A stretch of 38,596 nucleotides of DNA from Okeania sp. SIO1I7. GTDB lineage: Bacteria > Cyanobacteriota > Cyanobacteriia > Cyanobacteriales > Microcoleaceae. Of this stretch, positions 4,445 through 35,775 are shown one piece after another (the first letter of the stretch is position 1; each line of letters opens with the position of its first letter). The notes below the pieces were generated by a model. It had not been told where the DNA came from, did not search any database, and was given only the letters and a program-made list of their open reading frames with translations. Both the position numbers and the translations under genes were made by a program. Location: the NCBI GenBank assembly GCA_010672585.1, contig JAAHGF010000045.1, positions 1-38,596 on the forward strand, in the 5' to 3' direction.

Positions 4445-4875
4445 AATTAGGGTTTGCTAAAAAAGTATGAGTGGTAGGGGTAGGAGACAGGAGACAGGAG
4501 AAATTGGAATTTATAGGAGGTAGAAGTAAGAATTGTCCCTTAATTTTTATGCCCAACTATGTGCCTAAAATACGCTCCTTTTTGAGCATAAAGAGCTGAA
4601 AAATTTGCACTTTTTTCGACTCCAAAAATGCTTTAGTCGTAAGCATTCAGCTGTCAGCCATCAGCTATCAGCTATTGCTTTTAGTTTACAATCAAAGCAA
4701 TATTTAATTGTCTTACTACAAAAGTTGATTCCCTTGACCTTAAAGTCAGTTGTTAATTTAAACACTGTTCTTAAAGAGAAAATCTTTTTGCTGATAGCTT
4801 ACAGCTAATAGCTGAATGCTTACCTTTAGTCTTTATATGTCAATGCTTTTATATTTAATCAGCAAGTCCTAATTA
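4445..4875 (-). mobile_element. miniature element, family B, copy 2, interrupted
   Basis: A reverse-oriented family B copy with ends TAATTAGGGTTTGCT and AGCAAGTCCTAATTA. It is split by a family A element at 4639-4823. Without that insert and one 8-bp duplication, the sequence lines up with the reverse complement of the intact copy at 34309-34548. It is followed by five AATTATT heptamers (4870-4905). Confidence 0.8.
4639..4823. mobile_element. miniature inverted-repeat element, family A, copy 1
   Basis: This 185-bp element has ends GTAAGCATTCAGCTGTCAGC and GCTAATAGCTGAATGCTTAC. It is flanked by the perfect 8-bp direct repeat CTTTAGTC (4631-4638 and 4824-4831). It has no coding capacity. GTAA ends with 8-bp duplications are typical of the IS66 family, as I recall it, so a non-autonomous IS66-type element is the best guess. 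Confidence 0.9.
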
Positions 4876-5176
4876 TTAATTATTAATTATTAATTATTAA
4901 TTATTTTGTAGCTCACGCTTTTTAGGAATTGCTATAATCTAAAATATAGCAATCCGCGCATTGGTTGTGACAATTTTTATAATAGTTAATTTGAACTGAA
5001 AACCTTTCATCTTCTGACCCCTGTACGTCCCCAATCCAACGACTCCCCTACCTGACTCCTAACTCCTAACTCCCACCAAAATATTACAACTTAAATAGGA
5101 TTGCTATATGTAGATAAGATCGAGTCTAATAAATAGATTGAGTATCAGATTGTAAAAATACAAATATTTAAAGACT

Positions 5177-8694: not shown

Positions 8695-8993
8695 CTAATT
8701 ATCTAGTCGTCGCAATTTCTTCTTTGCCCACTCCCGCAGTTTTTCATCTGGGTCATTTTCCGCTCTGTCTTGTAATAGTGGGAGGGTTTGCGGATGGTTT
8801 GGGTAATGTTTGACTATTTCTTCTAGTGCAATTTGTCGAGGGTTGTCTTCCCAGTTTTTTTCACGTTGAAAGGGGTCATTGACGGCAGTGCGATCAAAAA
8901 ATTCAAAAATTCCGGGTTCATGTTTCCAACCAGTAGCTATTTGTTGTACTGCTTCAACTCGCACATCGTGATCATCATCAGACTCTACACATT
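8695..8993 (-). pseudogene. frameshifted C-terminal tail of the NACHT protein
   Basis: This frame encodes the end of the NACHT gene, out of phase with 8985-11882 by one base. At 8994 the repeat unit reads GTTGAG where every other unit reads GTTTGAG, and the spacing to the next unit is 101 bp instead of 102. Restoring one T joins the frames into a protein of about 1062 residues. The tail carries one more 34-residue repeat and a cap with FEFFDRTAVNDPF, WEDNPRQIALEEI and DRAENDPDEKLREWAKK. The same cap ends the repeat protein at 16663-19347. It is either a real inactivation or truncation of the tail, or a sequencing error in a short T-run. Confidence 0.85.
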
Positions 8994-11882
8994 GTTGAGT
9001 AATTCAAAAATTCCCGGCTCATGTTTCCAACCAGTAGCTATTTGTCGCACGGCTTCACGTCGCACATCCCGATCATCATCAGACTCTATCCATTGTTTGA
9101 GTAATTCTAAAATTCCCGGCTCATGTTTCCAAGCAGTAGCAATTTGTCGTACCGCTTCAACTCGCACATCCTGATCATCATCAAACTCTACCCTTTGTTT
9201 GAGTAATTCTAAAATTCCCGGCTCATGTTTCCAAGCAGTAGCAATTTGTCGTACCGCTTCAACTCGCACATCCCGATCATCATCAAACTCTACCCTTTGT
9301 TTGAGTAATTCTAAAATTCCCGGCTCATGTTTCCAAGCAGTAGCAATTTGTCGTACCGCTTCAAGTCGCACATTCCAATTTTTATCAGACTCTACCCTTT
9401 GTTTGAGTAATTCTAAAATTCCCTCCTCATGTTTCCAACCAGTAGTAATTTGTCGTACCGCTTCACCTCGCACATACGAATCAGTATCAGATTTTACCTT
9501 TTGTTTGAGTAATTCTAAAATTCCCTCCTCATGTTTCCAACCAGTAGTAATTTGTCGTACCGCTTCACCTCGCACATACGAATCAGTATCAGATTTTACC
9601 TTTTGTTTGAGCCAATTATAGCTTAAAGGGTCATCTCTCCAGGTTTCAGCCACCACTGCCAAAGCTTGAGTACGAATTTTGCGAACTAGCTCTGACTCAT
9701 AACTATAAGGTTTGTAAGAATCACCAAGGTCATACCCAGTCAAATCTTTTATCCTATTTAACAACCTATCCTCTACATCACCAATATTCTGACGACTCCT
9801 AACTTCAAACAACAACTTACCTGCCAAAAATAAATTTACAAACTTTTCCTCTTCCCCCTCTTGCTCCATCAAATAACTAATAATTTCTCCCACAAACCTA
9901 GCATCTATCATGCCAGCAATTAACCGCAAAACCTCATGCCATTTTTCATCCTGCCAGTGCTTACCAAAAACATCTTTATTCAACTCATCTATTGAAATAC
10001 TTTGTGTTTCCTTAAACTGCCAAACAAACTCCCAAGCACAAAAATATTCCAAAAAAGTTCGATGCACAAAAGCATAATATTCTGCACCAACAAAACACAA
10101 AACAAAATTCCGACTCCGCAACTGTTCCATCAACGCTCTAGCAACAGTTCTCACATCATTAATGTCTATACTTTTGAGATACTCTGAAATAATCCTTTCT
10201 AAATCATCTCCCAAAATCAAATTGCCAGCTAAACCCGCAATATTCCCCTGCATAAAATGAGCAACTCGACGCAAAATTGCCTGCTTATCTTTATAGTCAA
10301 TAGTTATCGGATCAATCTTTGCATCAACTAATGCTCTTTCCATATCCCATTGATGTAGTAAAACCCGCGAAGCTTGATTATAAAGTTCTGCTCTATCTCT
10401 CGGCAATTCTTGATGACGATTCAGAATAGCCATCATAGTTAATAACAGAGGATTTCTTGCCAATTCCTTAATAGGTGGAGAATCCTTAATTGCCCGTTTC
10501 AATCTTTCCCTTTTCCTCTCTCTTTCTGCTTCATCTGGATAAGTCAGATTATGCCAACGTTGAATAAAATCCTCAATTTGTTCGGCTGACAAATCTTGCA
10601 GTATAAAATGATTAAATTCAGCATCCCGGAGTTTTTGTGGCTTATAACCAATCACCCGCGAAGTAACAATAACCCGCACATTTTTATAGTTATTAGTAAA
10701 CCGATGAATATCAGTAATTATTTCCTCTCGTTTTGCTGGCTCGAAAACCTCATCTAATCCATCAAACATCACAATAGCATCGCCATTTTGTAATTTTGCA
10801 TGGAGTTCCTTTTGAGGTAATTGACAAGTTATTCCGCTACCTTTTTCCAGAAAATCCAGAAAATTTTGGCATTTATTAGCATCATAGTTCCTCACATAAG
10901 TCCGTAGTTCAATTAATATAGGAATTGGCTGTAAATATAAATCTTTCCGAGATAATTCTGCCCATTGTAGAGCGATATATTGTAATAAAGTAGACTTACC
11001 AGAACCAGGGTCGCCCAGAATCACTAAATATTTATATTTCTTGTCTTCTATTAACTCTAAAATCGAGCGAGTATGTTGCTCAAAATATCTGCGTCGGGAA
11101 GATTCTAATTGTTCTGGAGAAAGTTCTTCATCAAACTGCCCACTATCTTTTAACTGCTGTAAATATTCTTTAGGAATCTCATGTATTCGAGGCAGAAATT
11201 CCTGAGATTCCCGGACATTTTGAGGAATAAACATTCGCCATAATTTCAATTGATTATAGGCATAACCACTGGTATCTAAACTTTCTAATTTCAGATTTCC
11301 ATATTGTTCTCGGATTCCCTCCTGATATTTTTCTAGGTCAAAATCTGGTTTAATTTCGGTGTTTTGATTTGCCAATTTATCCAGATTTTCTGAATCCAAT
11401 ATTTTCCGTAGTTCATCCGACTCGCGAATAATTTTTTTCACCCTTCTCTGATATTGCTTGGCAACTAATTCCCAGTCAAAATCATCTGGTAAAGGTGGAT
11501 TAATTTCGTTCCAAGTAATAGCTAGTTTATTAGTATCTAAAATTTTTATATAATTATCAAAAGCTCTAATCAAAACTTCTAAAATCAACTGATTTTTAAT
11601 AAATTGTTTTAAAGGTCGGTCGTATTGCTTTAACTGACCTTCATTCAATTCAGCATTTTCTAATTCTTGCTTTACCAAATATAAAAAATATTTAATAGCT
11701 TGTGCCGTAGCTTTTTGTAAAACTTTTCCATTTGTTATCCCACCAATAGCATCAGAGAGACCTTGCTTTAAAAAATCTTTAACATAGTCTTCAGCGGCAC
11801 CCTTACCTAATTCTCCAATAACTTCCTGAGCAATAAATTTAACCGCTTCACTACCCCCCCAAGCAATTAACCATTCAATCAT
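8985..11882 (-). CDS. NACHT-domain NTPase with HEAT-like repeats (STAND family)
   Basis: The frame gives 965 residues. Residues 1-100 are an N-terminal helical domain (MIEWLIAWGGSEAV, then GELGKGAAEDYVKDFLKQG) of the kind found ahead of cyanobacterial NACHT domains. The NACHT NTPase has Walker A GDPGSGKST at 290-298, Walker B VMFDGLDEV at 371-379 and a sensor stretch VRVIVTSRVIGY at about 402-413. The winged-helix/helical part includes LARNPLLLTMMAIL and FVHRTFLEYFCAWEF. From about residue 755 there are seven 34-residue HEAT-like repeats (LLKQRVEFDDDRDVRVEAVR, then QIATAWKHEPGILE). Their DNA is nearly identical in units of 102 bp; two units (9401-9502, 9503-9604) are the same base for base. 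Proteins of this architecture are STAND NTPases, and bacterial NACHT proteins include anti-phage sensors. A defence role here is inference. The frame ends early because of the frameshift at 8994. Confidence 0.9.
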   Translation of the reverse strand: MIEWLIAWGGSEAVKFIAQEVIGELGKGAAEDYVKDFLKQGLSDAIGGITNGKVLQKATAQAIKYFLYLVKQELENAELNEGQLKQYDRPLKQFIKNQLILEVLIRAFDNYIKILDTNKLAITWNEINPPLPDDFDWELVAKQYQRRVKKIIRESDELRKILDSENLDKLANQNTEIKPDFDLEKYQEGIREQYGNLKLESLDTSGYAYNQLKLWRMFIPQNVRESQEFLPRIHEIPKEYLQQLKDSGQFDEELSPEQLESSRRRYFEQHTRSILELIEDKKYKYLVILGDPGSGKSTLLQYIALQWAELSRKDLYLQPIPILIELRTYVRNYDANKCQNFLDFLEKGSGITCQLPQKELHAKLQNGDAIVMFDGLDEVFEPAKREEIITDIHRFTNNYKNVRVIVTSRVIGYKPQKLRDAEFNHFILQDLSAEQIEDFIQRWHNLTYPDEAERERKRERLKRAIKDSPPIKELARNPLLLTMMAILNRHQELPRDRAELYNQASRVLLHQWDMERALVDAKIDPITIDYKDKQAILRRVAHFMQGNIAGLAGNLILGDDLERIISEYLKSIDINDVRTVARALMEQLRSRNFVLCFVGAEYYAFVHRTFLEYFCAWEFVWQFKETQSISIDELNKDVFGKHWQDEKWHEVLRLIAGMIDARFVGEIISYLMEQEGEEEKFVNLFLAGKLLFEVRSRQNIGDVEDRLLNRIKDLTGYDLGDSYKPYSYESELVRKIRTQALAVVAETWRDDPLSYNWLKQKVKSDTDSYVRGEAVRQITTGWKHEEGILELLKQKVKSDTDSYVRGEAVRQITTGWKHEEGILELLKQRVESDKNWNVRLEAVRQIATAWKHEPGILELLKQRVEFDDDRDVRVEAVRQIATAWKHEPGILELLKQRVEFDDDQDVRVEAVRQIATAWKHEPGILELLKQWIESDDDRDVRREAVRQIATGWKHEPGIFELLNNV
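8994..9604 (-). repeat. 102-bp tandem repeats inside the NACHT gene
   Basis: Units start with GTTTGAG (on the + strand) at 9095, 9197, 9299, 9401 and 9503, with a further edge at 9605, exactly 102 bp apart. A seventh, shortened start is at 8994. They encode the 34-residue HEAT-like repeats. The sequence identity is far higher than protein constraint needs, which points to recent unequal exchange or conversion. Confidence 0.95.
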
Positions 11883-11914
11883 AATTATTTAATCTCTTAT
11901 ATTTTAGTTATTTT

Positions 11915-12108
11915 GTAAGCATTCAGCTATTAGCCATCAGCTATCAGCAATAAGACCCTATGCTTAAGGACGAGGTCTAAATGAATATAGACTTTGGAGC
12001 TGACTTTTATAGCAAGATTTTTCGTTTCTCAATTAAATATTACTTTCATCACTCACTAAAAGCAATAGTTGATAGCTGATAGCTGATAGCTGACGGCTGA
12101 ATGCTTAC
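11915..12108. mobile_element. miniature inverted-repeat element, family A, copy 2
   Basis: A 194-bp element with ends GTAAGCATTCAGC and GCTGAATGCTTAC-type (here GGCTGAATGCTTAC). It is flanked by the perfect 8-bp duplication GTTATTTT (11907-11914 and 12109-12116). It lies 33 bp upstream of the NACHT start codon, so it could supply or disturb that gene's promoter. Confidence 0.9.
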
Positions 12109-12188
12109 GTTATTTTTTATTATATAGCGCTACGGAAATGGGGAATAGGGAATATGTTTATAGCTATACTTCAATCTCCCCAACTCCC

Positions 12189-12323
12189 TTACCGAAAAAT
12201 TGTGGTTTAAAGCCTTCCCTTTTAAGGGGATAATAAAGAAAATTTTCATTATTAGTCAATCCTCTTCTTTTCAAGGAGAGGTAATTATTAATTATTAATT
12301 ATTAATTATTCATTATTAATTGT
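12189..12323 (-). repeat. intergenic repeat, family D, copy 1
   Basis: It starts TTACCGAAAAATTGTGGTTT, carries CTTCCCTTTTAAGGGG and a GTCAATCCTC block, and ends in AATTATT heptamers. Related copies lie at 30142-30383, 32143-32350, 32430-32649, 34150-34300 and 36240-36436. The rest of 11883-12452 shows no gene. Confidence 0.6.
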
Positions 12324-12452
12324 TGACCCCCTTACCTGATGAAAATCACTCGAATTTCATTTTTAAATCACCACCACCACCAGAAATTAGGAAGATGATT
12401 AAAGTATAGAAGTTAAAAACAAAAGTCAAAAAATACGAAAAACCAAATCATT

Positions 12453-13259
12453 ATGAAACAAGCAATTCGACAACAAGCAATGCCAGGAATTCTTGGTGGA
12501 TTAGGACCACTAGCACATATTGAATTTGAACGTCGTCTAATTGCTTTAAATGCAGAACGAGGTGCTACCTCCGATAGCGATCATCCCGTTTCGATTCTAA
12601 TTAATGCAACTGATGTTCCAGACCGTACTCAAAGCTTGCTGGGAAATGCCCCAAGTTGTACTCCTTCACTGGTGAAATATGGGAAAATACTACAAATGGC
12701 AGGAGCAGATTTTTTGGTAATTACCTGTAATACAGCTCATGGATTTTACGAAGCTGTACAATCTCAGTTAGATATTCCCTGGATTAATCTGATGAATATT
12801 ACTGCACAATATATTCAAAGTCATTATCCTCATAGTCGCAGAGTAGGTGTTTTATCAACAACAGGAACATTGCAAGCTCAACTCTATCATAATAGTTTAA
12901 GTGCTTTAGGATTAACTGCGATCGCACCACCCTTAAACTCTCCATTACAAAGAGATATTATGAATGCAATTTACAATCCTGTTTGGGGAATTAAAGCTAC
13001 AGGAGTCGAAATTTTCCCACCGGCAATTTCAATTTTAGAAAATGCTATAACTTGGTTAAAAGAGCAAGGAGCAGAATTAGTCATTGCTGGATGTACTGAA
13101 ATATCAGTAGTATTGCAACAACTCAGACTTCACTCGCTGATTAATATTGACCCCCTTGATATTCTTGCCAATCTGACTTTAGATTTCGCATTTGGTCATC
13201 AAGAAATTCCAATCAATAGACCCAACTCATCTACTCAAAAATTATACCAATTCACTTAA
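12453..13259 (+). CDS. aspartate/glutamate racemase family protein
   Basis: This 268-residue protein matches the usual size of PLP-independent Asp/Glu/hydantoin racemases. It opens with the typical PGILGGLGPLAHIEFERRL strand-loop-helix. Two catalytic Cys motifs, TCNTAH (first half) and GCTE (second half), sit at the expected places for the two-base mechanism that moves the alpha proton. The expected reaction is interconversion of L- and D-Asp or Glu in the cytoplasm; the substrate cannot be fixed from the sequence. No clear Shine-Dalgarno is seen before the ATG. The gene faces a DAACS-type acidic amino acid symporter, which suggests a shared role in acidic or D-amino acid metabolism, for example peptidoglycan supply or recovery. 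Confidence 0.85.
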   Translation: MKQAIRQQAMPGILGGLGPLAHIEFERRLIALNAERGATSDSDHPVSILINATDVPDRTQSLLGNAPSCTPSLVKYGKILQMAGADFLVITCNTAHGFYEAVQSQLDIPWINLMNITAQYIQSHYPHSRRVGVLSTTGTLQAQLYHNSLSALGLTAIAPPLNSPLQRDIMNAIYNPVWGIKATGVEIFPPAISILENAITWLKEQGAELVIAGCTEISVVLQQLRLHSLINIDPLDILANLTLDFAFGHQEIPINRPNSSTQKLYQFT

Positions 13260-13327
13260 AAAATGTCACAAATAGCCAAATAATAGGCTGAAATAACTGT
13301 AAAATTCAGGTTTCAAGTCACTAAAAT

Positions 13328-13370
13328 ATAACTTCTAACTTCTGACTTCTGACTTCTAACTTCTGACTTG
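13328..13370 (-). repeat. GAAGTCA/GAAGTTA heptamer tract
   Basis: Six 7-bp units (on the + strand TAACTTC/TGACTTC). It lies about 10 bp beyond the symporter stop codon, next to the small palindrome GCGCTACGCGC. The purine strand is the sense strand of the symporter. Confidence 0.75.
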
Positions 13371-13379
13371 CGCTACGCG

Positions 13380-14684
13380 CTATAATGCAGGCGATCGCTT
13401 ATAATCAGCAACTGCTGCTGTAGCTGCAATTCCTGTATGGACAATCCCCAAAGTCCGGAACGGATCGATAATTGGGTCTACCGCAATCAATAACACCAGT
13501 ATTGCTTCTAGTGGTAATCCCAAAGGTTGCAGTACTAAATCTAATAATGTTAAAGTTAAAATTCCCGTCGCTCCTGCTGTTGCCATCCCTGCTAAAATGG
13601 AAGCAACAATAATAATTACAAAACTAGATAAGTTTAACTGATGCTGATAAAGTTGAGCTACAAATACGGAAGTTGTGGCAAAATAAACCACGGGACCGAA
13701 TCTACAAACAGTAATTGCCAGAGGAATCACTAAATTAACTGTTTGTTTATCAAATTTCAGTAGCTCAGTTAAAGCAGAAATGGAAGACGGTAAACAGGTA
13801 AAACTACTCCTAGTTGCCAAAGCTAAAATTGTTGGTTCTTTTAAACTAATCAACACTTTCCACAAAGAACAATCTGCCTTTTGCCAAACAACCAGGGTGC
13901 TAACTACATAAATAATAAAAAATATTAAAATTGTAATGATTACAAAATTTTTCATAGCAGCTAAAATACCAAAACCAGTCGTCGCTATTTGGCTAGCCAA
14001 AAGACAACATAAACCCATGGGCAAGAATAAAATTATCCAATCAATTAACTTTTTTGAAGCTTTAAATATAGTTTCTAAAATATTAAACACTTCTTCCTTA
14101 TAAGATTCTTTGAGATATCCCATTGCTACGCCAAAAACAATAGCAAAAAATAGTATTTCCAGAGCATTACCCTCACTTAAAGATGCAAAAATATTCTCAG
14201 GAACTAAATTAAATAAAAAAGATATTAAATTTATTTCTGGCTCGACCACTTCTTCAATAATTTCACCAGTAAGAGATACCTCTAAATCTAATTGTGATTT
14301 GTTAACAATTATACCCAAAGCTGTTAAACTTGAATCGTCTAAATTCCCTCCAGGATTAGTGAGTAATGTAACAATTACTCCAATTAAACTTACGCCAATA
14401 AGTCCCATTGAAAATACAATTAAAATACGTTTGACATATTTATTAGCATCCTGACTACCTATTAGCCTGCCTACACTCATTGTTATTGCCGAAAATAACA
14501 AAGGTAAAACACACATTTTCAACAGCTCAAGATAAAGATTTCCAAAAGGAGTTAAAATCGCAGCTATATCTTTTTGAAAAATTCCTATATATAATCCTAG
14601 TAAAATTCCAGGTAAAATATACCATGGATTACGCAAAACTTTAATTAATGAATAAAAATTGAATCCTTTGTTTTTTGTCATCAT
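13380..14684 (-). CDS. dicarboxylate/amino acid:cation symporter (DAACS/SDF family), variant
   Basis: This 434-residue inner-membrane transporter has about eight hydrophobic helices and two re-entrant hairpins. Family features include the N-terminal WYILPGILLGLYIG and the scaffold PFGNLYLELLKMCVLPLLFS. The HP1-like loop is TRSSFTCLPSSISAL (291-305). The HP2/TM8 region has GMATAGATGI and DPIIDPFRT (403-411), which keeps the Asp and Arg that bind acidic substrates in GltPh-type carriers. The usual TM7 sodium motif NMDGT is missing (here CRFGPVVYF, about 327-335), and the NVTGD motif is VHTGI. Coupling ion or substrate may therefore differ from GltP/DctA. It lies 288 bp downstream of a solute-binding protein gene on the same strand, suggesting that the two work together. 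Either of two adjacent ATGs (14684, 14681) could start it. Confidence 0.85.
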   Translation of the reverse strand: MMTKNKGFNFYSLIKVLRNPWYILPGILLGLYIGIFQKDIAAILTPFGNLYLELLKMCVLPLLFSAITMSVGRLIGSQDANKYVKRILIVFSMGLIGVSLIGVIVTLLTNPGGNLDDSSLTALGIIVNKSQLDLEVSLTGEIIEEVVEPEINLISFLFNLVPENIFASLSEGNALEILFFAIVFGVAMGYLKESYKEEVFNILETIFKASKKLIDWIILFLPMGLCCLLASQIATTGFGILAAMKNFVIITILIFFIIYVVSTLVVWQKADCSLWKVLISLKEPTILALATRSSFTCLPSSISALTELLKFDKQTVNLVIPLAITVCRFGPVVYFATTSVFVAQLYQHQLNLSSFVIIIVASILAGMATAGATGILTLTLLDLVLQPLGLPLEAILVLLIAVDPIIDPFRTLGIVHTGIAATAAVADYKRSPAL

Positions 14685-14737
14685 AAATAATTATAAATTT
14701 TTTTTATCTTTTATGTAGGTTTAATACCCTACTTTAC

Positions 14738-14761
14738 TGATAACTGATAACTGATAACTGA
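14738..14761. repeat. ACTGATA heptamer tract
   Basis: Three copies of ACTGATA plus a partial one, upstream of the symporter start. Confidence 0.7.
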
Positions 14762-14850
14762 AATGACAAGAGGTAATTAAAATTATTTAGGTTCATAAGA
14801 CACGAAGTGACTTGTCATTGACTATCCATAAGCAATTTTCCCTTCTACCT

Positions 14851-14869
14851 CCCCCCTTTCAAAGGGGGG
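14851..14869. terminator. C6TTT-AAAG6 palindrome, possible terminator
   Basis: CCCCCCTTT, one base, AAAGGGGGG: a perfect 9-bp inverted repeat about 105 bp beyond the stop codon of the solute-binding protein gene. Similar GC-rich palindromes are dispersed repeats in cyanobacteria, so terminator activity is only a possibility. Confidence 0.4.
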
Positions 14870-14880
14870 GTAGGGGGGGA

Positions 14881-14974
14881 TGCCTTCTGCCTTCTGCCTT
14901 CTGCCTTCTGCCTTCTGCCTTCTGCCTTCTTCCTTCTTCCTTCTTCCTTCTTCCTTCTTCCTTCTTCCTTCTTC
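14881..14974 (-). repeat. long GAAGGCA/GAAGGAA heptamer array at stop codon
   Basis: About 94 bp of perfect 7-bp units, first CCTTCTG and then CCTTCTT on the + strand. It overlaps the TGA of the solute-binding protein by two bases (stop at 14973-14975). The purine strand is the mRNA strand. Confidence 0.95.
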
Positions 14975-16166
14975 AATTAAATTTATCTGCACTAGATGTT
15001 TCTAATAACTCAGAATACTCATCCAACAAACTCTTAACACTATAATGATTATTGGTAATTTGTAGATATAAATTAACAAATTCTAACAAGTGATTGCTAG
15101 ACCATGGCAGAGCAATTGCTATCGGATCTTGAGTATCTGTTAAGGCAACAGTTTGAAAATTCAAAGCCACATTTGGTTGATTTATAACAATCTTTTTTAC
15201 TTCTAATTCATCCCGGTATGCTGCCAATATATCTCCTCGAATAGCACCTTTCACTACCTCTTCCCAACTCGGATATGTCACAATTGTAGCCTTGGGAAAT
15301 TTCTGTTTGGCAAATCCTTCATAGGAAGAACCATCAATTACTCCAATCTTTCCTTCAAAATCCCTCAAAAATTCTACTGTCTCTTTATTTTTAGCTGCTT
15401 TAGTTAATTGTATTCGGTTGAGTAATAAACCCTGGCGCATTGTCAAATAAGGATGAGAAAAAGAAATTATCTTAGCTCTATTCAAAGTTTGACTAATTTT
15501 AGAAATCCCTAAATCTGCTTGACCTCGATCGACAATTTCAACCACTTCATTAAAAGTTTTAGCACTACGATTAATCTGAAGTTCAACCCCTAAAGCTTCA
15601 GCCAAACCTCTAGCAATTTTAATATCTAATCCTTCCAATTCACCCCTATTATTTTCAACAAAAAAAGGTGAATTATCATACTCAGTCATCACAACAATTA
15701 ACTCACCTCGGTCAACAATTTTTTGTATATCCGGAGAGAGCAACTTTACTGAGGAAGATTTTTGTGGGAAGCTGCTAGTATTTCCTTGAAGCAAAGCCCA
15801 AGTTTTTTCATCAACTATTGCCGTTGCTTCTAACCCCAAACTAATTTGAAAGTTATAAACAGCATCCTGAGTTTGTTCTCCATAAATTCCATCTATAGCT
15901 CCGGGATAATAACCTTTTTGTTTTAATTTAGTTTGTAGCTGAATAACATCATATTCTTCACTATTTTCAGTTACTTGTGAATCTAAAGTATTAACATCCT
16001 GGATATCTTTTGTCTTTCTAATCTCAGCAATTTTTTCTGCTGCTTCGATGGAAACAGAATTTGCAGAATGTTCTGTTTTTATAAAAGTTGTAAAAATAAC
16101 AATTATTCCGAAAGAAACCAGAGTTAATTTGATAATTAAATATATTATTTTAGAGAATTTATTCAT
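14973..16166 (-). CDS. membrane-anchored solute-binding protein with peptidoglycan-binding domain
   Basis: The frame gives 397 residues from the ATG at 16166. I prefer this to the ATG at 16190 because AGGAAAG lies about 6 bp upstream of it. A single N-terminal helix (residues about 6-29) anchors or exports the protein. Residues about 71-126 are a PG_binding_1 domain ([20 protein letters not shown], then [13 protein letters not shown]). Residues about 145-390 are a family 3 bacterial solute-binding domain for polar amino acids ([66 protein letters not shown]). No ABC permease or ATPase gene is nearby. The next gene on this strand is a DAACS symporter, so the binding protein may feed a secondary carrier or a periplasmic sensing process. 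It should act in the periplasm, tethered to membrane and wall. Confidence 0.85.
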
Positions 16167-16190
16167 GGAATCTTTCCTGACTCCTAACAA

Positions 16191-16662
16191 TATTTAGTAA
16201 TACCATAATTTAATACTAACCTTCATAGGTAAGCATAGATTTTCAGACTTCATAATCTGGCTTTAACTATCATAAACAAGTGAACTTGTCAACTTTCCGG
16301 AAAAAAGTTTTAGGTGAGGTATTTTATCTATTTTGACAACTCTCTGGACTTAGGCAAAAAACGAAATTATACACCATTTGTAGGGGTTAACAGCCGTTAA
16401 CCCCTACCATTAAATAGCACTCAGCACTCAGCATTAGGACTTTTTTTACGTTGAGTCAGGGATTTAAATCCCTCCTAAACTATCCGGCGCAATAATTGCT
16501 GGGGATTTAACCCAAGGTCAAAAAGCTGTTAACGTTTGCGTAGCATGACCTAGGAAAGTTCCTCTGCAAGAGGCTAACTGAAATGCTGATAGCTGATAGC
16601 TGATAGCTGATAGCTGATAGCTGATAGCTAGTTAAACTTGCTGCAGATATAGCCTAGATTCG
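16191..16662. other. intergenic region with small palindromic repeats
   Basis: No gene is seen. It holds a GGGGTTAACAGCCGTTAACCCC palindrome-like stretch near 16383-16405 and a GTTTGCGTAGCATGACC-type short repeat near 16530. A GAGGCTAAC-flanked array of about six CTGATAG heptamers occupies 16585-16629. Confidence 0.6.
16585..16629. repeat. CTGATAG heptamer array
   Basis: About six 7-bp units. The heptamer also makes up the arms of the family A elements, so this may be an expanded remnant of one arm. Confidence 0.85.
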
Positions 16663-19347
16663 CTAAAATCCTTTTAAAGTTTTCAAAGCAAACTTTTGTA
16701 CTTGCTCATCTAAATCATTTTCAGCTCGATCGCACAATATCTGGAAAATTTGAGTCTTTTCTTGATATTGTTCAAGAATTACCTCTAACGCAGTTTGGCG
16801 CGGGTTATCCTCCCATTCTTCCTGACGTACAAATGGATCGGAATAGGCTCGAACGCCGAAAAATTCAAACATTTCAGGATCGTCATGCCAACCTAAAGCT
16901 AACTGCTGTATTGCTGAACGTCGTACATAAAAATTATCATCATACTCAGCTAGTTTTTTCAGCATAATAACAGCACAAGGATCGTTTTTTCCCAGCATAG
17001 CAAATAATTCTAAAGCAGTTTGTCGCACATAAAAACTACTATCACTCATAGCTACTTGTTTGATAATTGCTATCGCTTCAGGGTCATGTTGCCAACAAAT
17101 ACCCAACTCCACCACTGCTGTTTGTCGGACGCATACATCCTCATCAGAAATAGCTAATCTTTTAAATAACGCTAATGTCTCAGGGTCATCTTTCCAACCG
17201 AGAGCTAATTGCTGCATTGCTGCTTGTCGTACTTCTCGCTCATCTGTAGACTCAACCGTTTGTTTGAGAATAGTCAAAGTATCGGGGTCATCTTTCCAAC
17301 CGAGAGCTAATTGCTGCATTGCTAGCTGTTGTAAATCTGGACATTGAGCCGATACAGCCAACTTTTTGAGAGCAGATATGGTCTCAGGATCATCCTTCCA
17401 AGTAGTAGCTAATTGCAGTACTGCTGACTGTTGTAGCTCAGAACAATTGCCAGACACAACCAGTTGTTTGATAATATCTAGAGTGTCGGGATCGTCTTTC
17501 CAGTCTGTAGCTAACTGTTCCATTGTTGCTTGTTGCACATCAGAAGACGGATCGTCAACTGCTTGTTGTTTCAACCAAGCTAAGATATTAGGGTCATCCT
17601 TACCCTCATTGCCTAATTTAACAACCGCTGCTACTCGCACATCAGAACATTGGTCGGATACAGCAATTTGTTGCAGAGTTGCCAAAGTATCATTATCATT
17701 TTTCCAAGTAGTAGCTAACAATTCCATTGCTGCTATGCGTACTTCTGAAAAATTATCGGACAATGCTGCTTGTTTAATGGTAGCGATCGCCTCTGGGTCA
17801 TCTTTCCAACCTTTGACCAACATCTCCATTGCTGCAATTTGTACATCGTGGCGATCGTCAGACAAAGCAACTTTTTTGACAACTGCAAAAGTCTCAGGAT
17901 CGTCATGCCAAGTAGTAGCTAGTTGTTCAACTGCTAACTTCCTAGCGTGCCAACAATCATCTTGGAAAACAACTTGTTTGAGAATAGTCAAAGTATCAGG
18001 GTCATCTTTCCAACCTATAGATAATTCTCGTATTGCTGCCACTCGTGCATTGGAGTTAGACAAAGCCAATTTTTTCAGCAGACCTAAAACACTAGGGTCC
18101 TCTTTCCACCCAACAGTTAATTGTGCTACTGCGATCTCTCCCACCACCCAACATTCAGCAGACTCCACTTGTTGTTTGAGAAAAGTCAACACATCTGGAT
18201 CATGTTGCCAAAATGCACCCAGCTGTACCACTGCCAGTTCTCGCATCCGCCAACATTCATCTGACTGTACAACCTGTTTGAGAATAGCTACTGTATCAGA
18301 GTCTTTTTGCCAGTTTTCGATCAAATAGCCCATTGCTGCTTTTCGCACTTCTGAAGCTGTGTCTGATATCGCCAACTTTTTCATAATAGCTACTGTATCA
18401 GAATTTTCCTTCCAATCTTTGATTAACTGTTCCACTGCTGCCAGTCGGACATGAGAACACTGGTCAAATTCTGCAAGTTGTTTGAGAGTTGATAACGTAT
18501 CTGGATCGTTTTCCAAATTTTCTGCTAGTTGACTCATCGCAGCTCGTCGTACCTCTGAAGCTTGAGCAGACAAAGCCAACTGTTTCAGAATAGTTCCGGT
18601 ATCAATGTCATCTTTTGCCAGTTTGGCTAACTTGAATACTGCTTCTGAAGCCACATAAGGGCTTGGATCGGACATTGCCATTCCTTTGAGCCAGGCTAAA
18701 GTCTTACTATCGTATTTCCCATCTTGATTTAATTTTTCTATGATGATTAAACGTACTCCCCAATGTTTATCTGATTCTGCTCTTTGTCTGATCCAGGTCA
18801 GAGTATCTATATCTTGCCAACCTTCAGCTAAAAGTTCTACTGCTGTTTCCCGCAAAGCTTCATCAACATCAGAGACAGCTCGTTGTTTCAAAAATGCTAG
18901 AGTTTCTGGTTCATTTTGCCAGTTTTGGGCTAACTGTTTGAGTGCTGCATAACGTACATTTGAGGAACGATATTGATCTGCCAAAATCAGTTGTTTGAGG
19001 AAAGCGATCGTATTTGGATCGTCATGCCAACCTGCAGTTAATTTGCTAAGTATGGCTTCTTGCACCCACCAATATTCGTTGTTAGATACTACAAATTGTT
19101 TAAGAAAAGGTAAAATACTAGGATCGTTTTGCCAACCTTGGACAAGATATTCTGTTGCAGCTCTCCGCACATCTGGACATCCATCGGATATAGCTAATTG
19201 TTTAAGAATAGCTAAAGTATCCGGGTGATTTTTACATTCTATGGCTAGCTCTTCCAATGCTGCTATTCGCTGTTCTGGGTCTTCGTCAAAGACTACTTGA
19301 CGTTTCAGGGAAGATAACGTTTGAGAGTCATTTTTAAGCATTATCAT
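16663..19347 (-). CDS. 894-residue HEAT-like repeat protein
   Basis: The whole protein is a solenoid of about 25 repeats of 34 residues, each like LKQLAISDxxxxVRxAAVxQ then LAxxWKDDPDTLAI. It starts within three residues of the first repeat (MIMLKNDSQ; the ATG at 19341 is an alternative start). It has no signal peptide, membrane helix or enzymatic domain. The last 75 residues form a cap (FEFFGVRAYSDPF, WEDNPRQTALEVI, DRAENDLDEQV) closely matching the cap of the frameshifted NACHT protein at 8695-8993. Repeat length and consensus also match that protein. The repeats here are well diverged at DNA level, so this copy is old and under constraint. HEAT_PBS-type solenoids bind proteins. A scaffold, regulator or decoy partner for the NACHT protein is inference; a phycobilin lyase is unlikely at this size. 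Confidence 0.85.
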   Translation of the reverse strand: MIMLKNDSQTLSSLKRQVVFDEDPEQRIAALEELAIECKNHPDTLAILKQLAISDGCPDVRRAATEYLVQGWQNDPSILPFLKQFVVSNNEYWWVQEAILSKLTAGWHDDPNTIAFLKQLILADQYRSSNVRYAALKQLAQNWQNEPETLAFLKQRAVSDVDEALRETAVELLAEGWQDIDTLTWIRQRAESDKHWGVRLIIIEKLNQDGKYDSKTLAWLKGMAMSDPSPYVASEAVFKLAKLAKDDIDTGTILKQLALSAQASEVRRAAMSQLAENLENDPDTLSTLKQLAEFDQCSHVRLAAVEQLIKDWKENSDTVAIMKKLAISDTASEVRKAAMGYLIENWQKDSDTVAILKQVVQSDECWRMRELAVVQLGAFWQHDPDVLTFLKQQVESAECWVVGEIAVAQLTVGWKEDPSVLGLLKKLALSNSNARVAAIRELSIGWKDDPDTLTILKQVVFQDDCWHARKLAVEQLATTWHDDPETFAVVKKVALSDDRHDVQIAAMEMLVKGWKDDPEAIATIKQAALSDNFSEVRIAAMELLATTWKNDNDTLATLQQIAVSDQCSDVRVAAVVKLGNEGKDDPNILAWLKQQAVDDPSSDVQQATMEQLATDWKDDPDTLDIIKQLVVSGNCSELQQSAVLQLATTWKDDPETISALKKLAVSAQCPDLQQLAMQQLALGWKDDPDTLTILKQTVESTDEREVRQAAMQQLALGWKDDPETLALFKRLAISDEDVCVRQTAVVELGICWQHDPEAIAIIKQVAMSDSSFYVRQTALELFAMLGKNDPCAVIMLKKLAEYDDNFYVRRSAIQQLALGWHDDPEMFEFFGVRAYSDPFVRQEEWEDNPRQTALEVILEQYQEKTQIFQILCDRAENDLDEQVQKFALKTLKGF

Positions 19348-20014: not shown

Positions 20015-20962
20015 ATGCGAGAACTTTATCCACCCATTCAACCTTATAAAGTAGGCAATCTAAAAGTTTCCGATCTTCACACTATTTATTATGAAGAATG
20101 TGGCAACCCCCAAGGTAAACCAGTAGTATTTTTACATGGTGGACCAGGTGGTGGAATTATGCCTCTTTATCGTCAATATTTTGACCCCAAAAAATGGCGA
20201 ATTATTCTATTTGACCAACGAGGTTGTGGCCGTAGTACTCCCCATGCTGAACTATCTCAAAATACTACCTGGAATTTAGTCAGCGATATAGAAAAATTAC
20301 GAGTTCATCTAAGTATTGAAAAATGGGTTGTGTTTGGAGGTAGTTGGGGAAGCACTCTAGCATTAGCTTATAGTCAAACTCATCCAGAAAATTGTATAGG
20401 CTTAATTTTACGAGGTATTTTTATGGTGCGCCCGAAAGAAATTTCTTGGTTTTATCAAGAGGGTGCAAGTAATATTTTTCCTGATGCTTGGGAGGAATAT
20501 TTAAAACCTATTCCTATAGAAGAAAGAGGTGATTTAGTTAAAGCTTATTATCAAAGATTAACCAGTGCTGATGAAAAAGTTAGATTAGAAGCAGCACGTG
20601 CTTGGTCAATTTGGGAGGGAAGTACCAGTAAATTAATTCTAAATTCAAACGTATCACAACAATTTGGGGATAGTTATTTTGCTTTAGCTTTTGCTAGAAT
20701 AGAATGTCATTATTTCATTAATAAATGTTTTTTTGAACATGAAGAACAGTTATTAAAAAATGTCTATAAAATTCGGCATATTCCAGGAGTAATTGTACAA
20801 GGAAGATATGATGTTGTTTGTCCGATGGTATCAGCTTGGGAATTACATAAAGCTTGGCCGGAATCTGAATTTATTGTAGTGCCAGATGCCGGACATTCAG
20901 TTTCTGAACCAGGAATTATAGATGCTTTAATTGGGGCAACTGATAAGTTGGCAATTCTTTGA
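20015..20962 (+). CDS. pip: proline iminopeptidase
   Basis: This 315-residue alpha/beta hydrolase is the normal length for bacterial proline iminopeptidases. It begins with the typical LYPPIQPYKVGNLKVSD. HGGPGGG (41-47) forms the oxyanion region and DQRGCGRS follows at about 67-74. The nucleophile is S110 in GGSWGS (108-113). The acid is D266 in GRYDVVCP and the base is H294 in DAGHSVSEPG. It removes N-terminal proline from peptides in the cytoplasm and thereby helps recycle peptides. It appears monocistronic; both flanks exceed 600 bp. The stop codon TGA is directly followed by GAAGGCA heptamers. Family assignment is secure; preference for proline over other residues is from the family. Confidence 0.93.
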   Translation: MRELYPPIQPYKVGNLKVSDLHTIYYEECGNPQGKPVVFLHGGPGGGIMPLYRQYFDPKKWRIILFDQRGCGRSTPHAELSQNTTWNLVSDIEKLRVHLSIEKWVVFGGSWGSTLALAYSQTHPENCIGLILRGIFMVRPKEISWFYQEGASNIFPDAWEEYLKPIPIEERGDLVKAYYQRLTSADEKVRLEAARAWSIWEGSTSKLILNSNVSQQFGDSYFALAFARIECHYFINKCFFEHEEQLLKNVYKIRHIPGVIVQGRYDVVCPMVSAWELHKAWPESEFIVVPDAGHSVSEPGIIDALIGATDKLAIL

Positions 20963-35695: not shown

Positions 35696-35699
35696 TTAA

Positions 35700-35775
35700 A
35701 GAAGGAAGAAGGAAGAAGGAAGAAGGAAGAAGGCAGAAGGAAGAAGGCAGAAGGCAGAAGGCAGAAGGCAGAAGG
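35700..35775 (+). repeat. GAAGGAA/GAAGGCA heptamer array after pstA
   Basis: About ten 7-bp units begin five bases after the pstA stop codon, purine strand as sense. A family E motif (GACGGCGGGGTATTAAACTT, about 35826) follows. Confidence 0.9.

What the first reader, a model, noticed from the sequence alone, without database searches (positions are those of the whole stretch)
8695..19347. NACHT protein and a free-standing copy of its repeat-plus-cap domain
The NACHT NTPase (8985-11882, with its displaced tail 8695-8993) and the 894-residue protein at 16663-19347 share the same 34-residue repeat and a nearly matching C-terminal cap (WEDNPRQxALE, DRAENDxDE). One has N-terminal and NTPase modules; the other is only solenoid. 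In STAND proteins the repeat domain usually senses the trigger, so a separate copy could be a regulator, decoy or second sensor. The repeats of the NACHT gene are almost identical at DNA level while those of the other gene are diverged, so only one is evolving quickly. Known: bacterial NACHT proteins include phage defence sensors. A two-part system is inference.
Basis: partly seen in the sequence, partly recalled or inferred. Interest (0 to 1): 0.72.

Follow-up and report, generated by a model that had tools for sequence, protein, structure and literature searches.

The report
Immune-like NACHT gene near unlinked solenoid
A fast-changing, immune-receptor-like gene of an Okeania-type cyanobacterium lies near an old, slowly changing protein that shares its repeat-and-cap module, and comparison with relatives suggests two separate genes rather than a dedicated pair.

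Summary
In detail: the NACHT gene (NNH2-NACHT-connector-HEAT array, cap out of frame) and the 894-residue protein (24 HEAT repeats plus cap) share repeat and cap; the caps are about 49% identical. The two-part reading is mostly not supported. In relative G002 twelve window genes keep their order but the NACHT is absent; 2 of 8 solenoid orthologues have such a NACHT within 20 kb, both at one ancestral site. NACHT-free repeat-plus-cap proteins form three lineages; in one, 8 of 27 genomes showed no NACHT of this kind. The contrast in evolution is real. NACHT repeats are 72-83% identical in DNA within a gene, vary in number, and show excess amino-acid change at residues 12, 13, 16 and 20 of the 34-residue unit, all on the second helix. 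The solenoid keeps its length and near-gapless alignment down to 71% identity, dN/dS 0.16-0.25, like its housekeeping neighbours. A genuine two-gene arrangement does exist in this NACHT family, but it is another one: a solenoid-less NACHT just upstream of a NACHT-HEAT gene (seven genomes, two lineages; not in the window). Functions remain inferred; the window's NACHT is frameshifted and may be decaying, or mis-assembled.

The parts
8985..11882 (-). NNH2-NACHT-connector-HEAT protein, 965 aa, cap lost by frameshift
11271..11810 (-). NNH2, NACHT N-terminal helical domain 2 (residues 25-204)
   Evidence: Pfam PF22734, E 1.4e-60
10548..11030 (-). NACHT NTPase domain (residues 285-445)
   Evidence: Pfam PF05729, E 1.4e-10; GDPGSGKST and VMFDGLDE present
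9699..10034 (-). connector between NACHT and repeats (residues 617-728)
   Evidence: own profile of 30 relatives; also heads the second class of NACHT-free solenoids
8900..9611 (-). 102-base HEAT repeat array, 7.0 copies
   Evidence: Tandem Repeats Finder; unit identity; per-residue variation
8695..8994 (-). displaced tail: last repeat plus cap, out of frame with the NACHT gene
   Evidence: cap in frame in the paralogues at C25 and C33
8698..8889 (-). cap of the NACHT gene (NPRQxALE, DRAENDPDE)
16663..19347 (-). free-standing solenoid protein (called type I here), 894 aa
16891..19326 (-). 24 HEAT repeats, 48 helices (residues 8-819)
   Evidence: register by script and AlphaFold2 model, mean pLDDT 84.4, pTM 0.50
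16666..16890 (-). cap of the solenoid protein (residues 820-894)

Best explanation
The two genes share an old sensor module (HEAT array plus cap) that has had two fates. (1) The NACHT protein is an NLR-like STAND switch. Its HEAT array turns over by recombination between near-identical units and varies at a few surface residues, as expected of a target-binding sensor in an arms race. Inferred steps: a ligand binds the array, the NACHT domain is released and oligomerises, and the helical NNH2 domain carries out or recruits the effect. The window copy has lost its cap by a frameshift and is probably decaying, unless the assembly is wrong. (2) The 894-residue protein is an old, NACHT-free, 24-repeat scaffold with a fixed surface under ordinary purifying selection. 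It most likely binds a fixed cellular partner in its own right. Its nearness to the NACHT gene is a property of one site in part of the genus, not a conserved pair. Shown: anatomy, rates, residue pattern, presence and absence. Inferred: ligand binding, switching, effect, and the solenoid's partner.
For: Empty NACHT site in G002 with gene order kept. Orthologues in 7 relatives at 71-95% identity, 897 columns for 894 residues; dN/dS 0.16-0.25 against 0.16-0.25 for two neighbours and 0.27-0.41 for NACHT comparisons (its repeat part failed and was redone). 17 of 23 units match best at the same place in G011. NACHT units in six genes: 0.72-0.83 DNA identity, 7 to 23 units. In 146 units of 13 genes, pN at residues 12, 13, 16, 20 is 0.37 against overall pS 0.21, ratio 1.46-2.22 by bootstrap over genes, above 1 in 12 of 13 genes; four positions chosen on the three own-genome genes (10, 12, 13, 16) give 1.51 in the other ten. 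The four lie on helix B of the modelled repeat (14 of 24 units mapped). At the same positions the solenoid keeps 76% identity to the three distant orthologues. Second NACHT-free class keeps the connector (E 1e-22 to 1e-31) and sits by a transporter pair in 8 of 9 contexts, by nirB in 6.
Against: All 8 genomes with the solenoid have such a NACHT. Contigs are short: G001 (7.4 kb) and G021 (8.0 kb) say nothing on linkage, and none of the others shows a full 20 kb on both sides except G004. The cap has about 98 columns: one common origin of all NACHT-free caps is not rejected (p 0.21), nor is type I as sister of the Okeania/Trichodesmium NACHT caps (p 0.27). The four residues were first picked on the same data; at all nine variable positions pN 0.30 is close to their own pS 0.27, and gene conversion disturbs such ratios. 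In the solenoid those nine positions are slightly less conserved than the rest (0.715 against 0.768, p 0.02). Between the window and G004 the NACHT has dS 0.24 but neighbours 0.11, so that pair may not be strict orthologues. No function was tested.
Confidence: 0.66

Rival explanations
1. Two-part system: the free solenoid-cap protein works in trans on the NACHT protein as decoy, guardee, co-sensor or brake.
For: Shared cap; all 8 genomes with the solenoid carry such a NACHT (Fisher p 0.007 over 61 genomes); adjacency in the window and in G004.
Against: NACHT absent at the site in G002 and G003 and from the stretches read around the solenoid in G016 and G011; all 14 genomes of the genera concerned have such NACHTs with or without the solenoid; one case in eight within 20 kb has chance probability about 0.09; slow evolution unlike that of the NACHT array.
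Confidence: 0.15
2. The NACHT gene is dead or dying, and its sequence features are relics; only the solenoid is a working gene.
For: Frameshift before the cap; broken relatives with stops inside are listed in several genomes; extra partial caps downstream of three caps.
Against: NTPase motifs intact and dN/dS of 0.27-0.41 still below 1; two intact paralogues in the same genome; the displaced tail is still open. A sequencing or assembly error in a repeat would look the same.
Confidence: 0.4
3. The repeats are near-identical only because of recent unequal crossing-over without selection; the variable residues are simply the unconstrained surface.
For: At all nine variable positions pN is near their own pS (0.30 and 0.27); homogenisation needs no selection.
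Against: The core four exceed overall pS in 12 of 13 genes and four positions chosen on three genes exceed it in ten others (ratio 1.51).
Confidence: 0.3

Closest known systems
Bacterial NACHT (bNACHT) anti-phage proteins, e.g. bNACHT25 (PMC12169576, passages seen)
   Same: central NACHT module with N- and C-terminal modules
   Different: here NNH2 at the N-terminus and a HEAT array with cap at the C-terminus; the passages name a nuclease and an NCH1 domain for bNACHT25; no defence function tested here
Fungal NLRs with highly conserved internal repeats (PMC4986451, abstract and passages seen)
   Same: near-identical repeats, repeat-number differences, a few positively selected residues per repeat
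   Different: bacterial, HEAT array with a cap; the fungal paper reports WD, ANK and TPR classes (its TPR class includes HEAT) and uses over 85% protein identity, which the arrays here do not reach on average (0.56-0.75)
DGR-diversified NACHT-linked sensors of multicellular bacteria (PMC10907252, passages seen)
   Same: NACHT-linked sensor with targeted variable residues
   Different: here variation lies in a repeat array; a reverse transcriptase or template repeat was not searched for
HEAT scaffolds such as CAND1 and karyopherins
   Same: long HEAT superhelix
   Different: best TM-score about 0.3 and 13% identity: a fold likeness only, no kinship shown
NCBIfam NF058535, antiphage EruA
   Same: NACHT region matches, 28.9 bits
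   Different: far below its cut-off of 1000 bits

Membership tests
NACHT-type STAND NTPase | NACHT domain above the curated cut-off with Walker A and B | tested here: met
   PF05729 41.7 bits against cut-off 26.7; GDPGSGKST, VMFDGLDE
NACHT-type STAND NTPase | C-terminal superstructure-forming repeats | tested here: met
   HEAT_2 at 790-879 and further stretches
Known anti-phage system in PADLOC | convincing full-length match to a system model | tested here: not met
   only partial matches, best HEAT-ARM_XIII E 1.5e-8 over part of a 1972-position profile
Anti-phage NLR | protects against phage | not testable with these tools
   needs an experiment
NLR with highly conserved internal repeats (fungal definition, over 85% identity) | mean internal protein identity over 85% | tested here: not met
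   mean 0.56-0.75 in six genes, maximum 0.88-1.00
NLR with highly conserved internal repeats (fungal definition, over 85% identity) | few residues per unit with excess amino-acid change | tested here: inconclusive
   excess at four core positions, held-out ratio 1.51; near neutral over all nine; no codon model on alleles
Dedicated two-gene NACHT plus solenoid system | conserved linkage | tested here: not met
   2 of 8, one site; G002 and G003 lack the NACHT there
Dedicated two-gene NACHT plus solenoid system | physical interaction | not tested

The most novel reading that the evidence does not exclude
Filamentous cyanobacteria run an NLR-like network in which recombining HEAT arrays with a few variable residues per unit are the recognition surface; solenoid-less NACHT twins, encoded directly upstream of a NACHT-HEAT gene, act as helper or executor to that sensor, an arrangement evolved at least twice; and NACHT-free solenoid-cap proteins are former sensors taken over as fixed scaffolds.
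Probability: 0.25. Interest if true: 0.78.

Novelty: new variant of a known kind. Interest (0 to 1): 0.5.

Why it matters
If the NACHT reading is right, these arrays are a bacterial case of the repeat turnover seen in fungal NLRs, in HEAT form, with residues named for testing. The solenoid-less twin beside a NACHT-HEAT gene would give a bacterial setting in which to test paired-receptor logic like that of plant NLR pairs (the plant comparison is recalled). The NACHT-free solenoids show how a sensor module can become a slowly evolving protein, which warns against reading every free-standing copy as a decoy.

Tried and rejected
Tried: NACHT remnants beside the solenoid in the window and in six relatives: none (best E about 0.1). 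PADLOC and NCBIfam: no telling match. Connector in type I or the Moorena type at a relaxed threshold: none. Virus-borne relatives of the cap (a decoy carried by phage): 13 pattern matches in viral contigs, none a relative (that collection only). Fold search for the solenoid: generic HEAT scaffolds, TM about 0.3. NNH2 model: mean pLDDT 66.7, no match at E 0.001 or better, so no effector type can be named. Literature: eight searches in the open library; none of the listings showed a paper on these NACHT-HEAT-cap genes, their free solenoids or the twin arrangement; preprints and most subscription journals are not held, so this is no proof of absence.

Rejected or corrected: first cap tree carried L172 under the wrong label (it has a connector and lies at a contig start); rebuilt without it. 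In the first tree starred branches forced 3 changes for the NACHT label, in the second only 1, so the number of origins is left open. Searches stopped with script errors after part of their output; redone.

Rows left out: one search used 97 of the 105 cap matches (8 second or partial cap pieces beside a listed one dropped) and 73 NACHT matches; the distant rows at 31-35% identity were dropped, and one row at 42% (G075:C131), whose genome was counted anyway. Type II was called by frame length 690-770 without a NACHT nearby; 9 of the 27 were looked at with flanks. The cap trees left out 27 of 28 unclassified fragments.

Full report
What is there. The window is a whole contig (C50) of a 9.48 Mb genome. 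Four genomes of its genus group match contigs of named Okeania records by length and place, so the genus is taken as Okeania by inference. The NACHT gene at 8985-11882 (-) has NNH2, NACHT, a connector and HEAT repeats; its last repeat and cap lie in another frame at 8695-8994. The genome holds two more NACHT genes of the same build with the cap in frame, 1198 and 1571 aa.

Is the solenoid a copy of this NACHT's domain? The caps are 49% identical, while the three NACHT caps of the genome are 72-76% identical. In a tree of 65 caps the window's NACHT cap and 15 other NACHT caps form a branch (100/99) without the solenoid; the type I solenoids form their own (100/99). The solenoid is therefore not a recent copy. 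Its deeper place is unsure: sisterhood with that NACHT branch is not rejected (p 0.27).

Is it linked to the NACHT? Full-length orthologues occur in the four other genomes of the genus group (91-95%) and in three others of the family (71-77%). In G002 the twelve window genes from 1941 to 26948, NACHT excepted, keep their order, with one extra open frame; between the racemase and the histidine kinase there are 810 bases and no NACHT. In G003 that stretch is rearranged and also without NACHT; in G004 an intact NACHT of 1171 aa lies there. The stretches read in G016 and G011 hold none. Contigs of G001 and G021 are too short to tell. So 2 of 8 are within 20 kb, at one site; chance alone gives at least one of eight with p about 0.09. 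The alpha/beta hydrolase at 20015 is next to the solenoid in 5 of the 7 relatives.

Survey. With a profile of 14 caps, 46 of 61 family genomes have a cap at E 1e-14 or better, and 70 of 195 genomes drawn from the order. From 97 cap matches I counted 40 with a NACHT upstream, 8 type I, 27 of a second NACHT-free class (type II, about 700 aa) and 22 fragments. Type II begins with the NACHT connector, which shows kinship with NACHT proteins beyond repeats and cap; whether it lost the NACHT or the NACHT was added to it is not shown. In 9 contexts it lies next to an ABC-2 transporter pair in 8 and follows nirB on the same strand in 6, nirD in 5 (Pfam names for one of them, L128). 19 of its 27 genomes have a NACHT of this kind and 8 do not; none lies within 20 kb. 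A third class is in four Moorena records (505-507 aa in three, a 289-aa frame in the fourth). The three classes are separate branches, yet one origin is not rejected (p 0.21).

Rates. dN/dS of type I against seven orthologues is 0.16-0.25, the same as for the racemase and hydrolase neighbours; NACHT heads give 0.27 (G004), 0.31 and 0.41 (own paralogues). Units within NACHT genes are 0.72-0.83 identical in DNA and number 7 to 23 in the six genes measured; in four type I genes 0.39-0.42 and in two type II genes 0.33 and 0.36.

Variable residues. Over 146 units of 13 NACHT genes from seven genomes, scaffold residues hardly change while residues 5, 7, 11, 12, 13, 16, 20, 28 and 30 change more than the overall synonymous level. 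The strongest, 12, 13, 16 and 20, are on helix B of the modelled repeat. Bootstrap over genes: 1.46-2.22 for these four, 1.19-1.75 for all nine, 0.25-0.43 elsewhere. Because they were picked on the same data, I chose four positions on the three own-genome genes (10, 12, 13, 16) and tested the other ten genes: 1.51; the wider set of 14 positions gave 1.03. One gene of 13 is below 1. In the solenoid the same positions differ between repeats but are kept between orthologues (0.76 for the four; 0.715 for the nine against 0.768 elsewhere, p 0.02).

A different two-gene arrangement. In G001, G010, G025 and G028 a NACHT of 784-789 aa (605 aa where the contig ends) with NNH2, NACHT and connector but no solenoid lies 67-68 bases upstream of a longer NACHT. 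The four short ones end alike. The long partner is complete with cap in G028; in the other three it runs off the contig, with repeats seen in two. Short and long genes form sister branches (100/100 and 100/99, together 100/98), each with the Okeania copy outside the three others, as expected of one tandem duplication inherited together. In the order survey 4 of the 48 genomes with a NACHT match show the arrangement, but only five candidates a genome were scored. The window's NACHT has no such twin: the next gene upstream is the racemase, and the genome has only three NACHT matches of this kind.

Mechanism, with what is shown and what is inferred. Shown: build, presence and absence, rates, residue pattern. 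Inferred: the array binds a variable target, the NACHT switches, NNH2 acts. The NNH2 model is poor (pLDDT 66.7) and matches nothing solved at E 0.001, so the effect is open. For the solenoid I commit to a fixed-partner scaffold; the partner is unknown.

Known or new. The NACHT gene is a member of the STAND NACHT class by domain and motifs; it fits no PADLOC system and not EruA. Repeat turnover with selected residues is described for fungal NLRs (PMC4986451, abstract and passages seen), and variable sensors tied to NACHT proteins for DGR systems (PMC10907252, passages seen). I saw no paper on the NACHT-HEAT-cap genes or the twin arrangement in eight searches, which cover open papers only. Hence: new variant of a known kind.

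Noticed in passing
L213, L214, L215, L121, L190, L219, L221: Solenoid-less NACHT genes directly upstream of NACHT-HEAT genes, in seven genomes and two lineages.
   Followed up: partly
L123, L125-L128, L132: NACHT-free HEAT-cap protein of about 700 aa following nirB (6 of 9 contexts) and nirD (5 of 9), and beside an ABC-2 transporter pair in 8 of 9.
   Followed up: partly
L103, L104, L112: Extra copies of the last part of the cap 200-1000 bases downstream of the main cap; remnants of tandem duplication or donor pieces.
   Followed up: no
L218:2384-5473: NNH2-NACHT head joined to DUF1822 instead of HEAT repeats: swapped C-terminal module.
   Followed up: no
L165, L169, L182, L210: Other NACHT genes whose cap lies in another frame than the NACHT, as in the window; decay, assembly error or frameshifting not told apart.
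   Followed up: no
L066:17974-19578 and L067:1090-2088: In G004 a capsule-type gene set (PGA_cap, CapC) lies between the solute-binding gene and the solenoid.
   Followed up: no
1118-1741: Tandem repeat of a 141-base unit, 4.4 copies, 92% matches.
   Followed up: no
window, many places: Many short arrays with a 7-base period, e.g. 4870-4905, 14883-14974, 16585-16629, 35699-35775.
   Followed up: no
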